From Nitrospira sp. (GTDB lineage: Bacteria; Nitrospirota; Nitrospiria; Nitrospirales; Nitrospiraceae), in contig JAFEBI010000016.1 in the NCBI GenBank assembly GCA_018242725.1, positions 12,237 through 76,236 of the forward strand: a DNA stretch of 64,000 nucleotides, read 5' to 3'. The notes under the pieces are model-generated. The model ran no database searches. It was not told the DNA's origin and saw only the letters and a list, made by a program, of their open reading frames with translations. The translations under genes and the position numbers were made by a program. Of this stretch, positions 4,642-9,831 are shown piece by piece (positions within the stretch are counted from its first letter, which is position 1; each line of letters begins with the position of its first letter).

Positions 4642-4671
4642 GTTACCCTCACAAAAGCAAAGAGGGGTTTG

Positions 4672-5373
4672 ATGATTAAGACAATGCGAGATGCGTCTCA
4701 CAACTATCCTTGGCTGTTGAAATCCATCATGGGGATCCTAGCCATTGCCTTCGTCATTACGATGGGCTGGTGGGGATTCGGTGAGCAGTCCGGTGGACCG
4801 GTGGCGAAGGTCGGCGAACAATCGGTCTCACTGGATGAGTTTAAGCGTACCTACGAGAATATGCACCGGATCTATAAAGACAACGTCAAGACCGAGTTCA
4901 AAGACGAGGAGTTCAAGGACTTCGTCATGGGCCAACTCGTCGACAGCCGCGTGTGGATCATCGCCGCCCAAGAGATGGGTGTACGGGTATCCGATGCTGA
5001 TCTCCGTGAGCTCATCATGCAAACCCAGGTGTTTCAGAAAAACGGCGCCTTCGACCCGGATCTCTACAAGCGCATCCTCGCCGCCAATCACCTCACCCCC
5101 GCAGCGTTTGAGTCGATCCAGCATCAGGAAGTCTTGGCGAACAAGGCCCGCATGATCGTCCGAGATTCCGTTGCACTGACGCCTGATGAGATCGCCGAAG
5201 GGCAGTCCCTCATGACCCGACCCGCTGACGGGAACGATCCCGCCAAGATGGCTGAGGCCAAGCAACGGGTACTGGATGACATGCTCCTGCAGAAACAACA
5301 ACGTGCATTGGTTTCATTTCAACAGTCGATGAAGGCGAAGATTCCAATCACCATCCGGCGGGAGTTGCTGTAA
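4672..5373 (+). CDS. Membrane-anchored SurA-N/PpiD-like chaperone domain protein
   Basis: Probably an inner-membrane-anchored periplasmic chaperone-like protein. An N-terminal helix (SIMGILAIAFVITMGWWGFG) is followed by the SurA-N/PpiD N-domain: VAKVGEQSVSLDEFKRTYEN, a helical stretch (LVDSRVWIIAAQEMGVRVSDADLR) and FDPDLYKRILAANHLTP, the part PpiD uses as a chaperone module. At 233 residues it stops before any parvulin PPIase domain, so no isomerase activity is expected. The ATG at 4672 is preferred to the TTG 3 nt upstream because the ribosome site would otherwise be too close. It is a monocistronic plus-strand gene. Confidence 0.75.
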   Translation: MIKTMRDASHNYPWLLKSIMGILAIAFVITMGWWGFGEQSGGPVAKVGEQSVSLDEFKRTYENMHRIYKDNVKTEFKDEEFKDFVMGQLVDSRVWIIAAQEMGVRVSDADLRELIMQTQVFQKNGAFDPDLYKRILAANHLTPAAFESIQHQEVLANKARMIVRDSVALTPDEIAEGQSLMTRPADGNDPAKMAEAKQRVLDDMLLQKQQRALVSFQQSMKAKIPITIRRELL

Positions 5374-5443: not shown

Positions 5444-5674
5444 TTACCGTTCGTGAAGCTCGCCTCGGATCCACTGGTAATTTCCTCGCCTCGACTTTGC
5501 ATGTTGGGACAACCACAAGAGGTTACTGATGGCCTTCTCCTTTGTGACCTTCATTCCGGCATACTCAGCCAGATAGTCCCTCAGAACCGCGCTCACGGAT
5601 GTCCCCTCTTCTCGTGCCTGAATGCGGGCACGCTTCAGCATATCGTCTTTGATTGCAACGATAAATTTAGCCAT
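5444..5674 (-). CDS. Ribbon-helix-helix antitoxin-like protein (VapB type), no toxin partner
   Basis: A 76-residue DNA-binding protein of the type that opens VapBC operons. The N-terminus (FIVAIKDDMLKRARIQAREE, then GTSVSAVLRDYLAEYAG) fits the strand-helix-helix of RHH antitoxins, and the C-terminus ends RGELHER, as many VapB tails do. A toxin gene should follow immediately on the minus strand, but only about 70 nt remain before the oppositely oriented neighbour and no PIN-domain frame is intact. It is therefore an orphan antitoxin or a stand-alone regulator. Confidence 0.65.
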   Translation of the reverse strand: MAKFIVAIKDDMLKRARIQAREEGTSVSAVLRDYLAEYAGMKVTKEKAISNLLWLSQHAKSRRGNYQWIRGELHER

Positions 5675-5760: not shown

Positions 5761-8445
5761 TTAGGGCTCTAAGTCCTGGACGAGACGAAAACCAATGCCG
5801 TCGTCCCGAGTGTCAGCGTCGTACCTGTCCCGGAACGAAGCACGCAAGTACACCGGTTTGAGGTACCAAGAACCGCCACGGAGCACGCGCCGGCCGCAGT
5901 TCCCATTGTTAGCCTCCATCCACGCCGATCCATTTGCTGGAGCTTGTTGATAGGTCTCATGCCAACAATCCTCGACCCATTCCCAGACATTGCCGCTCAA
6001 GTCATGGAGCCTAAAACCGTTCGCCTTTTTGGTGCCAACTTCTGCCGTGCGGTCATTCGAAAACACTGCATACTCCCCCAGCTCTGCTTCGTTGGAGGTG
6101 CCTGCCCAGTCTTCCTGCTTAGCTCCGCTGCGCGCCGCGTATTCCCATTCCGATTCGCTCGGCAGCCGATAGCGCGTTCCCGTTTTTTGGGACAACCAGG
6201 CAGCATAGTCTTTCGCATCTTGCCACGACACGTTGATGACCGGCCGCTTGTTACGCCCCCAGCCCTGATCATGTGGCAAAAGCCTCCTCTCGGCAATGGC
6301 AAACCGGTCATATTCCTCAAAGGTCACTTCGTACTTCCCCATGGCGAATGTCTTGATCGAAACTTCATGCACTGGATCCGCCCGAAGAAACTTCCCACCG
6401 TTTTTACCTTGCCGGAATGTCCCGGCTGGCACAGTCTCCAGGACCGGGGCAATATGGATACTCATGAAGTACGATTTGCCCCGCAGAAGTGCCTGCTCCA
6501 GCGTGAGTCCGGTCGTCCAGAGCCAGGCCCCCGCCCCACTCACAAACAGCATCACCAGCCCAATCGCACCAGCTTGTATCCACTTTGCGCGAGAACTAGC
6601 ATCGAGATAGGCTTTCATCAATGGCGTGGCCGCTGTCATCGAGCGTCGAAAATCCTGATATTCTCGACCGGACGCCAGCCCATCGAACCAGGGCTTGCCA
6701 AGCTCCTCCCACTTCTGCGCTCGGCTCTCCAGCAGCCGTTGATCGATCAATTGTTTCTTATTCACCTCGACATAGGCCTTGAGCGAGGGCCAGACCTCAA
6801 AAAGCTTTTCATGGCTGATGGATACCGTGGCCTCTTCATCCTGGCCTTCCGTGTGCAGCAAGCGCGCATCGACCAACGACTTAATCAGTCCCTTCATCTC
6901 CGGAAACTCTCTCAGCAGCGGTCGGCGACGCGTCGGCACCCCTTCCACACTCACCGTGACCAGCGACCGAAAGAGCGTCGGCAAATGCGCGAGGGTTTTC
7001 TCTCCACTCTTCTCTTGGATGCCGCGCTCGACCTGTTCGGCATGTTGTTTGATGGCCCCAGCTACTCCACCCAGCGTGGCATACACACCCGTCGTCAGTT
7101 CATGATCCTTCCGCTTCTCAAACAACTGATTCAGCAAGAACGCAAGCAGCGGAAGATTCCCTGGCTCAGCCCCTGCGTCATAGACAATCCGTCTCGCCAA
7201 CTCTTCGCTGACTCGCACGCCGGCGCAACCCGCCGGTTTCACGATCAAATCTTCGACCATATAGGGCTCGATCGGTCCCAGCGGATAATGCCCTGCACCG
7301 CCTAACACGGCACGCATGTCCGGGGAGTCATGACAGTGATGGAGATGATCGCTCCGGATGGTGGCGAGGACCCAGAGCCTGTTCTCTTGAGCGGCCCGAT
7401 ACAGCGCCGCGAGAAACTGCTGGGCTTTCGTCTGGTCTTGTGCGGTAAATAGTTCTTCCATTTGGTCGAGAAAGAGCACCAGCGCCCGCCCTTCCAGGCC
7501 ATTTTTGATGATTCGTGTCAGGTGTTCTGATAGGGAGTCCGGTTTCCTATTCAACGCGTCCACAATCTCATCCGGTCTCAGCCCGGCACGGGTCGCGATG
7601 CCTCCAATAGCCACGAGCAGTGAACTCCACGGATCTGTCCGTTGACTCGGCACCATCCGAACACACTCGCACTGAACCCCACCGGATAGCCCACCCTGCT
7701 CGAGTTTCGGCAGAAGCCCGGCGTCGATGAGTGATGATTTCCCGACCCCGGAGTTACCGCTCACGATGATGAATCGTCCCTGCGGTCCCTGCATACGGTC
7801 GAGCACCTCTCGCACTTCCGCCGTGCGGCCAAAGAAGACCGGCGCATACTTTCGGTTGAAGTGCATCAACCCAGGATAGGGTGAGCCCTGTGTCGCACTA
7901 TCCCAGGTGATGGCTGCGACACGTCCCGACCCCTGAGCCTCCGCCGATTCCGGTTGCTTCCTGTCAGCAAGATGCTTGGCGGCAGCCGCCAACACGAGTG
8001 TGCTCAACTCATGTGGCGCAGCAAATTGACTCGCCAGCTTTTCCGTCAAGAGGTGCTGTCGCAATGCCTTGATGCGCTCGCCTTTATCCTCTGCGGTATA
8101 GGCATCGTCAAACACGCGTGGCCACGCTGTCGTGTCGCTGACGGCAAACGTGAGACAGGGCTTCTTCAGCGCTTCGGCGCGACGGTACTCTAGTTCCGTA
8201 ATCGAGAGGCCCTTGGGATTGTCATGCTGTGCCGGAGGGACATACCCGTAACGGAAGGCGAACAGTCCGATATAGATATCGGCGGCTTCCACGTCTTTCA
8301 GACATTTGTCCACAGGCCGCTGGTCCGCCGCGACATAGTCTTCCATCGCGATGACGTGATGGCCGGCTTTTCGCAGCGCCTCATAGACCACACGGCGGTA
8401 GTCTTTCAAATCTTCGTACGTCGATGAAAGATAGAACGTCGCCAT
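5761..8445 (-). CDS. DUF4062 - STAND ATPase - FGE-like (C-type lectin fold) fusion protein
   Basis: Large signalling NTPase of 894 residues from the ATG at 8445. Order: DUF4062 domain (ATFYLSSTYEDLKDYRRVVY, residues about 2-90); STAND P-loop module with Walker A GNSGVGKS (about 230-237) and Walker B ALVLFLDQMEEL (about 321-332); winged-helix and helical region; one membrane helix (about 620-643, AGAIGLVMLFVSGAGAWLW); C-terminal FGE/SUMF1-like domain (about 666-894; PAGTFRQG, RLPSESEWEYAA, GNVWEWVEDCW, RVLRGGSW). The FGE part lacks the paired catalytic Cys of true formylglycine enzymes, so it is probably a sensor or binding domain. By analogy with other STAND proteins I infer a role in defence or regulated cell death. 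An in-frame start 69 nt further upstream is possible but would lie over the candidate promoter. Confidence 0.85.
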   Translation of the reverse strand: MATFYLSSTYEDLKDYRRVVYEALRKAGHHVIAMEDYVAADQRPVDKCLKDVEAADIYIGLFAFRYGYVPPAQHDNPKGLSITELEYRRAEALKKPCLTFAVSDTTAWPRVFDDAYTAEDKGERIKALRQHLLTEKLASQFAAPHELSTLVLAAAAKHLADRKQPESAEAQGSGRVAAITWDSATQGSPYPGLMHFNRKYAPVFFGRTAEVREVLDRMQGPQGRFIIVSGNSGVGKSSLIDAGLLPKLEQGGLSGGVQCECVRMVPSQRTDPWSSLLVAIGGIATRAGLRPDEIVDALNRKPDSLSEHLTRIIKNGLEGRALVLFLDQMEELFTAQDQTKAQQFLAALYRAAQENRLWVLATIRSDHLHHCHDSPDMRAVLGGAGHYPLGPIEPYMVEDLIVKPAGCAGVRVSEELARRIVYDAGAEPGNLPLLAFLLNQLFEKRKDHELTTGVYATLGGVAGAIKQHAEQVERGIQEKSGEKTLAHLPTLFRSLVTVSVEGVPTRRRPLLREFPEMKGLIKSLVDARLLHTEGQDEEATVSISHEKLFEVWPSLKAYVEVNKKQLIDQRLLESRAQKWEELGKPWFDGLASGREYQDFRRSMTAATPLMKAYLDASSRAKWIQAGAIGLVMLFVSGAGAWLWTTGLTLEQALLRGKSYFMSIHIAPVLETVPAGTFRQGKNGGKFLRADPVHEVSIKTFAMGKYEVTFEEYDRFAIAERRLLPHDQGWGRNKRPVINVSWQDAKDYAAWLSQKTGTRYRLPSESEWEYAARSGAKQEDWAGTSNEAELGEYAVFSNDRTAEVGTKKANGFRLHDLSGNVWEWVEDCWHETYQQAPANGSAWMEANNGNCGRRVLRGGSWYLKPVYLRASFRDRYDADTRDDGIGFRLVQDLEP

Positions 8446-8514: not shown

Positions 8515-8688
8515 GGCCCGAGTAGCATGGAGGCTTCACGCGTGGCCTGATCAGGATGACGAGTAGACAACAAACGACCTCGGATCAGAAAGACAAGAAG
8601 GCAGGTCTGCTAGCATCCTACCCAGAAGCTCATTCAGACCTCTGTAACCGTCATGAATACGAAATTCATAGATGCGTGAGCCTCCGCT

Positions 8689-8812
8689 GCAGGATACTCA
8701 AAAAGGCTATCCAGCAAGGCCGCAGCGAGTGAAGAGGCGAGGCGTACGCTTCGGTACGTTGAGCCCCTGAGCGACGCGAGAACGCCGCCGGCAGACTTTT
8801 TCAGCATCCTGC
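8689..8812. repeat. Palindromic intergenic repeat with terminal inverted repeats, copy 1
   Basis: A 124-nt element whose ends are imperfect inverted repeats of about 19 nt (GCAGGATACTCAAAAAGGC at the left; the right end reads GCAGGATGCTGAAAAAGTC on the other strand). Near its middle is a small hairpin (CGTAC, CTTCGG-type loop, GTACG). It fills the gap between the STAND gene promoter and queA, and its last base is the first base of the queA stop triplet. A diverged copy lies at 16828-16935. The form suggests a non-autonomous mobile (MITE-like) or REP-type element. The rest of 8515-8688 shows nothing I can name. Confidence 0.7.
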
Positions 8813-9831
8813 TACAGGATCAACATCGCATCGCCATAGCTATAGAAGCGATAGCGCTCGTTGACCGCTCCTTCATAGGCCTTGCGAACCGGCTCTATTC
8901 CGGCGAATGCCGACACCAGCATGAGCAGTGTGGTCTTCGGCAGGTGAAAGTTCGTCATCAGCGCATCAACAACCTTGAACTTAAACCCAGGTGTAATGAA
9001 CAGCCAGCTCTCGCCGGACATGGGGACCATCTCTCCCTTTTCCTTTATGACGGTTTCAAGTGTACGGACAACCGTCGTCCCCACAGCTACCACCCGTCCA
9101 CCGGCTCGCTTCGTTTGGCTGATCATGTTGGTTGTCTCTGAGCTGACATGAAAGACTTCCCCTCCCATCAGATGGTCTTCTATTTTCTCGGTCGTCACCG
9201 GCTTGAACGTACCAGGCCCCACATGCAGCGTGACCGTGGCCACGTTGATTCCAGCTTCTCGCAGTCGTTTAAATAATTCTTCGGTAAAGTGCAGACCGGC
9301 CGTTGGGGCGGCGATCGCACCTCCATGTTTGGCAAAGACGGTCTGATACCATTTCCCATCTTCCTGAGTGGGCGCACGTTTGATATAGGGCGGAAGGGGC
9401 ATCATTCCCCGCTCCTCGAGAAGCCTGGCGACCGGGATCGGACTCTCCACAAGCACCTCGGTCCCTGTTGCATCTCGTTTCACGATTGTTGCGCGGGACT
9501 GTTGATCGAACTCGATAATTTGGCCGACACGAAACGAACCCTTGACCATGATGTCCCATCGCCGATCTCCGAGATCCTTCACAAACAATACTTCGACCGG
9601 CGTTCCTGTCGACTGCTTGATTCCGGGCACCCGAGCGGCCATGACCTTCGTATCGTTCACAACGAGAAGGTCGCCCTGGTTCAGCAATGCAGGGAGATCA
9701 GCGACACGATGGTGCCGACGCTGTTGCGTGGCTCGATGAAGAACCAGCAAGCGCGCCTGGTCGCGAGGACTCACCGGCTGCAACGCGACGAGAGACGGGT
9801 CAAAGGGAAAATCGAACTCGGAGAGTTGCAT
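8812..9831 (-). CDS. queA: S-adenosylmethionine:tRNA ribosyltransferase-isomerase QueA
   Basis: Cytoplasmic enzyme that transfers and isomerises the ribosyl group of SAM to make epoxyqueuosine in tRNAs with GUN anticodons. The 339 residues start MQLSEFDFPFDPSLVALQPV, and the family signatures are present: QGDLLVVNDTKVMAARV, APTAGLHFTEELF, VTLHVGPGTF and TNFHLPKTTLLMLVSAF. The frame extends far upstream, but the ATG at 9831 overlaps the stop of the SpoIID-type gene (TGATG), indicating coupled translation and the true start. The 3' end abuts a palindromic repeat. Confidence 0.97.
   Translation of the reverse strand: MQLSEFDFPFDPSLVALQPVSPRDQARLLVLHRATQQRRHHRVADLPALLNQGDLLVVNDTKVMAARVPGIKQSTGTPVEVLFVKDLGDRRWDIMVKGSFRVGQIIEFDQQSRATIVKRDATGTEVLVESPIPVARLLEERGMMPLPPYIKRAPTQEDGKWYQTVFAKHGGAIAAPTAGLHFTEELFKRLREAGINVATVTLHVGPGTFKPVTTEKIEDHLMGGEVFHVSSETTNMISQTKRAGGRVVAVGTTVVRTLETVIKEKGEMVPMSGESWLFITPGFKFKVVDALMTNFHLPKTTLLMLVSAFAGIEPVRKAYEGAVNERYRFYSYGDAMLIL

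What the first reader, a model, noticed from the sequence alone, without database searches (positions are those of the whole stretch)
5761..8445. DUF4062-STAND ATPase-FGE fusion: candidate uncharacterised defence gene
The sequence shows a DUF4062 N-terminus, an intact P-loop with Walker B, a membrane helix between switch and C-terminus, and an FGE-like C-terminal domain. STAND NTPases with an effector N-terminus and a variable sensor C-terminus are known antiphage or cell-death switches. DUF4062 as effector and an FGE/C-type-lectin fold as sensor would be an unusual pair. It stands alone among housekeeping genes.
Basis: partly seen in the sequence, partly recalled or inferred. Interest (0 to 1): 0.65.

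Follow-up and report, generated by a model that had tools for sequence, protein, structure and literature searches.

The report
Immune switch with retroelement-written sensor
A Nitrospira gene joins a predicted NAD-destroying suicide domain, a molecular switch and a binding domain whose contact surface was written by a mutation-making retroelement now missing from this genome assembly, which makes it a likely antiphage alarm with a frozen, antibody-like sensor.

Summary
Window 5761-8445(-) encodes one 894-aa protein: DUF4062, nSTAND1 ATPase, a hydrophobic helix and an FGE-like domain. In two other Nitrospira genomes, an orthologue (74%) and a second relative (62%) are the target genes of complete diversity-generating retroelements (DGRs: Avd, RT and template repeat). 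The last ~105 bases of the window gene carry the DGR signature. Against a related template, codon positions 1-2 are changed at 15/29 adenines but 1/41 other bases; the rest of the gene shows no such bias. A second, unlinked DUF4062-STAND-FGE gene in the same genome shares this block, and all 14 differences fall at template adenines. No DGR RT, Avd or template is found in this assembly, so the sensor appears to be an orphan, frozen target. The gene sits in the queA-surA junction, which is empty in most relatives. Elsewhere the junction holds TIR-STAND-FGE genes, VapBC-type pairs and DGR relics. DUF4062 was reported in 2026 as a TIR-like NADase (Swarozyc), and its catalytic Glu is kept here (E86). 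Best reading: an abortive-infection STAND receptor armed with a NADase. Antiphage function is inferred, not shown.

The parts
5761..8445 (-). CDS, 894 aa: DUF4062 - nSTAND1 - hydrophobic helix - FGE/CLec
7960..8445 (-). N-terminal DUF4062 (TIR-like) effector domain, residues 1-162
   Evidence: Pfam; profile match to KpSwz 10wc (E 1.6e-15) and TEP1 11gz; predicted fold TIR/NDT-like, pLDDT 85
8188..8190 (-). codon of E86, predicted catalytic Glu (SITELE86Y)
   Evidence: aligned with KpSwz E97 and TEP1 E1008 positions (PMC13174449); invariant in A1
6694..7881 (-). nSTAND1 NTPase, residues 189-584
7732..7758 (-). Walker A GNSGVGKSS, residues 230-238
   Evidence: sequence
7450..7479 (-). Walker B VLFLDQMEEL, residues 323-332
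   Evidence: sequence
6508..6582 (-). hydrophobic (possible transmembrane) helix, residues 622-646
   Evidence: helix 608-645 in model
5779..6435 (-). FGE-sulfatase/C-type-lectin-like domain, residues 671-889; FGE catalytic cysteines absent
5776..5880 (-). DGR variable region (105 nt core); block shared with the unlinked paralogue G000:C10 is 5773-5892
5444..5674 (-). RHH antitoxin-like ORF (76 aa), partner PIN toxin missing here but present at the same junction in relatives; accessory, not shown to act with the STAND gene
8687..8812 (-). imperfect inverted-repeat (MITE/REP-like) element at the queA side of the insertion
8812..9816 (-). queA, left border of the junction
4669..5373 (+). SurA-N family gene, right border of the junction

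Best explanation
The gene is a STAND immune-type receptor. Its FGE/C-type-lectin end is the sensor, and that sensor's ligand-contact strip (residues ~857-890) was written by a diversity-generating retroelement through adenine-specific mutagenesis (shown by sequence). Ligand binding would release the nSTAND1 ATPase to oligomerise (inferred from the family). Oligomerisation would bring the N-terminal TIR-like DUF4062 domains together and switch on NAD+ hydrolysis, killing or stalling the infected cell (inferred from Swarozyc and TIR-STAND systems). In this genome the DGR machinery (RT, Avd, template) is absent from the assembly, so the receptor is best read as a frozen descendant of a once self-diversifying receptor, kept in a queA-surA hotspot where effector and sensor modules are exchanged.
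For: Architecture. DUF4062: profile match to KpSwz and TEP1, TIR/NDT fold, catalytic Glu kept. DGR: an orthologue (74%) in G058:C100 and a relative (62%) in N. defluvii MAG L187 are followed by Avd (NCBIfam DivGenRetAVD E 7e-29), DGR-type RT and a template repeat. In four cassettes template adenines are changed at 16-20 of ~30 and other bases at 0-1 of ~71. The window VR against the G058 template: codon positions 1-2, 15/29 A versus 1/41 non-A; control outside the VR: 0.19 versus 0.15. Unlinked own paralogue: 14/14 VR differences at template-A sites, p 3e-9. DGR relics at the queA-surA junction in relatives. Patchy insertion. Modules swapped: G005 has DUF4062 92-97% identical but the sensor about 28%. 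TIR-STAND-FGE sits at the same junction in G055.
Against: No experiment on any STAND-FGE protein is known to me. NADase activity and phage defence of this protein are untested. Human NWD1, NWD2 and NPHP3 have DUF4062 but showed no NADase activity in PMC13174449. No PADLOC model matches, and no known defence gene is adjacent in the window. The template used for the adenine test comes from another species. RT, Avd and template could lie in the ~4% of the genome not assembled. The FGE half of the full-chain model has low confidence.
Confidence: 0.72

Rival explanations
1. The DGR acts in trans and is still active: RT, Avd and template lie in an unassembled part of this genome, so the receptor is still being diversified rather than frozen.
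For: Two unlinked own genes share the VR block with no non-adenine difference, so the writing was recent; assembly completeness is 96%; trans-acting DGRs are reported (PMC10907252).
Against: No RT close to the DGR type, no bAvd and no template in 34 contigs of 4.0 Mb. The close relatives G005 and G075, both about 99% complete, also carry orphan targets without such an RT.
Confidence: 0.2
2. A non-immune regulator: a STAND switch controlling cell death, development or kin recognition, with the FGE domain reading self or neighbour ligands rather than phage.
For: PMC10907252 itself proposes kin recognition as an alternative; the hydrophobic helix could place the sensor outside the membrane.
Against: Location in a variable junction with TIR-STAND-FGE genes and toxin-antitoxin pairs, patchy inheritance, and an antiphage role shown for another DUF4062 protein (PMC13174449).
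Confidence: 0.17
3. A genuine formylglycine-generating or related FGE-fold enzyme fused to a STAND protein.
For: Best sequence matches of the domain include PvdO and FGE.
Against: The catalytic cysteine pair of FGE is absent (domain Cys only at 827 and 850), and the active-site stretch is the variable region.
Confidence: 0.02
4. A decayed or neutral relic: the receptor lost its diversifier and no longer works.
For: Orphan status here; a degraded copy with in-frame stops at the same junction in G075; both cassette-linked DUF4062 targets carry a 1-nt frameshift in the VR.
Against: In this genome the frame, Walker motifs, E86 and FGE core are all intact. Against the G058 orthologue third codon positions differ about three times as often as positions 1-2 (46% versus 16%), which indicates purifying selection.
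Confidence: 0.09

Closest known systems
DGR-diversified STAND conflict systems (Thiohalocapsa PB-PSB1 DGR 6 and clade 5D; PMC10907252)
   Same: nSTAND1 or NACHT core with a C-terminal FGE/CLec domain holding the variable region; some carry TIR effectors; trans or incomplete loci occur
   Different: Here the effector is DUF4062, the host is Nitrospira, and the DGR machinery is not found in the genome (orphan)
Swarozyc (KpSwz, DUF4062 antiphage NADase; PMC13174449, PDB 10wc)
   Same: N-terminal DUF4062 TIR-like domain with the catalytic Glu conserved
   Different: Swarozyc has an HTH/winged auxiliary portal-binding domain and no STAND ATPase or FGE sensor
TEP1 / NWD1 (DUF4062-NACHT-WD40, eukaryotes)
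   Same: DUF4062 placed before a STAND/NACHT ATPase and a C-terminal sensor
   Different: WD40 propellers in place of a DGR-type FGE/CLec domain; TEP1 works in the vault, and only TEP1 was active as NADase
TvpA (Treponema DGR variable protein, PDB 2y3c)
   Same: FGE-like C-type lectin fold with the variable region at the same place
   Different: No STAND or effector domain
Avs antiviral STAND proteins
   Same: Effector-STAND-sensor plan
   Different: Known Avs proteins use TPR-type sensors and nuclease or other effectors; no PADLOC model matches here

Membership tests
DUF4062 TIR-like NADase | DUF4062 domain by curated profile | tested here: met
   PF13271 79.6 bits, cut-off 24.7
DUF4062 TIR-like NADase | TIR/NDT-like fold and homology to solved DUF4062 proteins | tested here: met
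   Foldseek top hits RPS4/RRS1, SARM1 and bacterial TIRs and NDTs; VIA-align Z 11-13 to DNPH1 and TIRs; KpSwz E 1.6e-15, TEP1 E 8e-8
DUF4062 TIR-like NADase | catalytic glutamate | tested here: met
   E86 aligns with the KpSwz E97 position (Ala in the E97A chain) and TEP1 TEME; numbering inferred from the alignment
DUF4062 TIR-like NADase | NAD+ hydrolysis | not testable with these tools
   needs protein
Swarozyc sensu stricto | HTH/winged portal-binding auxiliary domain directly after DUF4062 | tested here: not met
   nSTAND1 and FGE follow instead
nSTAND1 STAND NTPase | profile match with intact Walker A and B | tested here: met
   PF20703 295 bits; motifs; fold like ORC/Cdc6, archaeal STAND-type ATPases and CED-4
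DGR variable protein | C-type-lectin/FGE fold with the variable region at the C-terminus | tested here: met
   PF03781; TvpA match
DGR variable protein | substitutions concentrated at template adenines | tested here: met
   15/29 A versus 1/41 non-A at codon positions 1-2 against the G058 template; 14/14 against the own paralogue; control negative
DGR variable protein | RT, Avd and template repeat in the same genome | tested here: not met
   none in 34 contigs at 96% completeness; present with the orthologue in G058 and L187
Formylglycine-generating enzyme | catalytic cysteine pair in the C-terminal strand region | tested here: not met
   no Cys after residue 850
Known PADLOC defence system | profile match | tested here: not met
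   0 families
Antiphage defence | reduced phage plating | not testable with these tools
   needs plaque assay

The most novel reading that the evidence does not exclude
Nitrospira keep a modular anticipatory immune system. DGRs write the ligand face of FGE sensors on STAND receptors armed with either DUF4062 or TIR NADase domains. Useful receptors are then frozen by loss of the DGR, and effector, switch and sensor modules are swapped at the queA-surA hotspot, much as an adaptive repertoire turns into inherited innate receptors.
Probability: 0.4. Interest if true: 0.8.

Novelty: new variant of a known kind. Interest (0 to 1): 0.63.

Why it matters
It ties a newly described NADase family (DUF4062) to retroelement-made sensor diversity. 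In the held library no paper that mentions DUF4062 deals with DGRs. A frozen receptor with a fixed variable region and a predicted, easily assayed output (NAD+ loss) is a practical way to find the first ligand of a DGR-written STAND sensor, a question left open since these systems were predicted. It also offers natural before-and-after pairs: cassette-linked and orphan receptors in one genus, and receptors sharing an effector but differing in sensor.

Tried and rejected
(1) PADLOC scan of the protein: nothing. (2) The single RVT_1 hit in the own genome looked like a possible DGR RT but is a group II intron type, 29% identical to the DGR RT. (3) A template repeat in the own genome: a search at E up to 10 found only variable regions. 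(4) queA 3' partial duplications in G006, G027 and G075 suggested an integrase-type attachment site; no integrase or duplicate was found at the window copy, so a site-specific element is not claimed. (5) FGE enzyme function rejected because the catalytic cysteines are missing. (6) My first mapping of the catalytic Glu to E84 was dropped: E84 is Gln in paralogues, whereas E86 is invariant and lines up with the residue mutated in the KpSwz E97A chain. (7) The full-chain AlphaFold model has pTM 0.44 and is used for domain layout only.

Full report
OBSERVATION. The minus-strand ORF 8445-5761 is intact and 894 aa long. Pfam finds DUF4062 (5-90, E 2e-22), nSTAND1 (189-584, E 1.5e-87) and FGE-sulfatase (671-889, E 2.7e-49). 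Walker A (230-238) and Walker B (323-331) are intact, and a hydrophobic helix lies at about 622-646. PADLOC has no model for it.

EFFECTOR. A profile of DUF4062 domains from this family matches the solved KpSwz DUF4062 protein (10wc, E 1.6e-15 over 2-159) and human TEP1 (11gz, E 8e-8). A predicted model (pLDDT 85) is closest in PDB to plant, human and bacterial TIR domains and nucleoside deoxyribosyltransferases. PMC13174449 (May 2026 preprint) shows that DUF4062 proteins are TIR-like NADases, names the antiphage system Swarozyc, and finds abortive infection dependent on E97. The equivalent residue here is E86, invariant in ten relatives; the solved KpSwz chain appears to carry Ala at that place, as expected for the E97A protein used in that paper. 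That numbering is my inference.

SENSOR. The FGE domain lacks the catalytic cysteine pair of formylglycine-generating enzymes and matches the Treponema DGR variable protein TvpA (2y3c) at the variable strip. In 79 Nitrospira genomes, the best full-length relative (74%, G058) stops matching at residue 861. That contig (L038, whole 8.9 kb) holds, in order: the DUF4062-nSTAND1-FGE gene; a bAvd protein (PF22296 E 3.5e-19; NCBIfam DivGenRetAVD E 7e-29); a reverse transcriptase; and an Asn-codon-rich copy of the FGE end, i.e. a template repeat. A second such cassette with a DUF4062-STAND-FGE target is in a Nitrospira defluvii MAG (L187, JACQHN010000540.1). Two more carry TIR-nSTAND1-FGE targets (L051 = G058:C47; L226 = G012:C140). 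Template versus variable region in these four: 16-20 of 29-31 adenines changed, 0-1 of 71-72 other bases changed. These are DGRs.

THE WINDOW COPY. Against the G058 template, its last 105 bases differ at codon positions 1-2 in 15/29 adenines but only 1/41 other bases. Over the remaining 852 codons the same comparison gives 0.19 versus 0.15 (no significant bias), and 0.19 versus 0.17 in the FGE part before the variable region. A second DUF4062-nSTAND1-FGE gene in the same genome (G000:C10, about 30% identical in the FGE domain) shares a sharply bounded block with it (window 5773-5892). The 105-base core has 14 differences, all 14 at template-adenine positions (p = 3e-9). Both genes were therefore written from one template, recently enough to show no drift at other sites. 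Yet the assembly (4.0 Mb, 34 contigs, 96% complete) has no DGR-type RT (only a group II intron RT, 29%), no bAvd and no template repeat. The receptor is an orphan target: frozen, unless the machinery lies in unassembled sequence.

LOCUS. In most Nitrospira genomes examined queA and the SurA-type gene are about 50 bp apart. In a minority the junction carries cargo: DUF4062-STAND-FGE (this genome, G005, and a degraded copy in G075), TIR-nSTAND1-FGE (G055), STAND-FGE (G056), RHH+PIN toxin-antitoxin pairs (G021, G025, G056, G075), DUF6036 nucleotidyltransferase genes, and partial copies of the queA 3' end. Pieces of the DGR cassette remain there in relatives: the Avd side in G075 and G055, and the template 3' flank in G007, G028, G035 and G056. 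In G056 the template and its flank are fused directly to the FGE gene, as deletion by VR-template recombination would leave them. The junction was thus an old DGR site that has decayed. Modules are exchanged: between this genome and G005 the DUF4062 domain is 92-97% identical over residues 1-120, STAND about 45-60%, and FGE about 28% outside the variable region.

RELATIVES. The full architecture is found outside Nitrospira in Thiorhodococcus drewsii AZ1 (L189) and Nitrosomonas (L202, L207), confirmed by Pfam for L189 and L207.

MECHANISM. Shown: domains, conserved active-site and Walker residues, a DGR-written sensor strip, absence of the machinery from the assembly, hotspot location, module exchange. 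Inferred: ligand binding by the variable strip, ATP-dependent oligomerisation, DUF4062 clustering, NAD+ loss, abortive infection. Where the sensor faces (cytoplasm or periplasm) is open; the hydrophobic helix is borderline (mean hydropathy 1.68) and has counterparts in G058, L187 and several TIR relatives.

KNOWN OR NEW. DGR-diversified FGE/CLec sensors on STAND proteins, some with TIR effectors, are described (PMC10907252; foundations in PMC7159879), and DUF4062 as antiphage NADase in PMC13174449. Among the nine held papers that mention DUF4062, none is a DGR paper. This is therefore a new variant that joins two known kinds, not a new category.

Noticed in passing
window 5444-5674 (-): Orphan RHH antitoxin-like ORF; a VapC-type PIN partner follows it at the same junction in G075, G021, G025 and (truncated) G056 but is missing here.
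   Followed up: partly
window 8687-8812: Imperfect inverted-repeat (MITE/REP-like) element next to queA; copies 81-90% identical at other Nitrospira loci, including the same site in G056.
   Followed up: partly
L045:1-6657 (own genome C30): MoxR-like AAA ATPase, vWA protein, a DUF4062 protein and an RtcR-like sigma54/TIR/DUF4062 fusion in a row: looks like a ternary conflict system with two DUF4062 parts.
   Followed up: partly
L047:6248-17831 (own genome C2 end): Conflict-island-like run: TIR-nSTAND1-FGE, a TPR-S/MAP3K_TRAF-binding protein, a WD40 protein with a possible TIR-like N-terminus, and a DUF4062 protein.
   Followed up: partly
L046:5805-8522 (own genome C3): TIR_2-nSTAND1-FGE protein, fourth member of the receptor family in this genome.
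   Followed up: partly
L038 about 1890; L187 about 4420: Both cassette-linked DUF4062 receptors carry a 1-nt deletion at the first template adenine after TGG, shifting the frame of the sensor's end; the same place twice is unexplained.
   Followed up: no
L087, L088, L098 (G075, G027, G006): Partial duplications of the queA 3' end downstream of queA, with DUF6036-like nucleotidyltransferase genes between: possible traces of repeated insertion at queA.
   Followed up: partly
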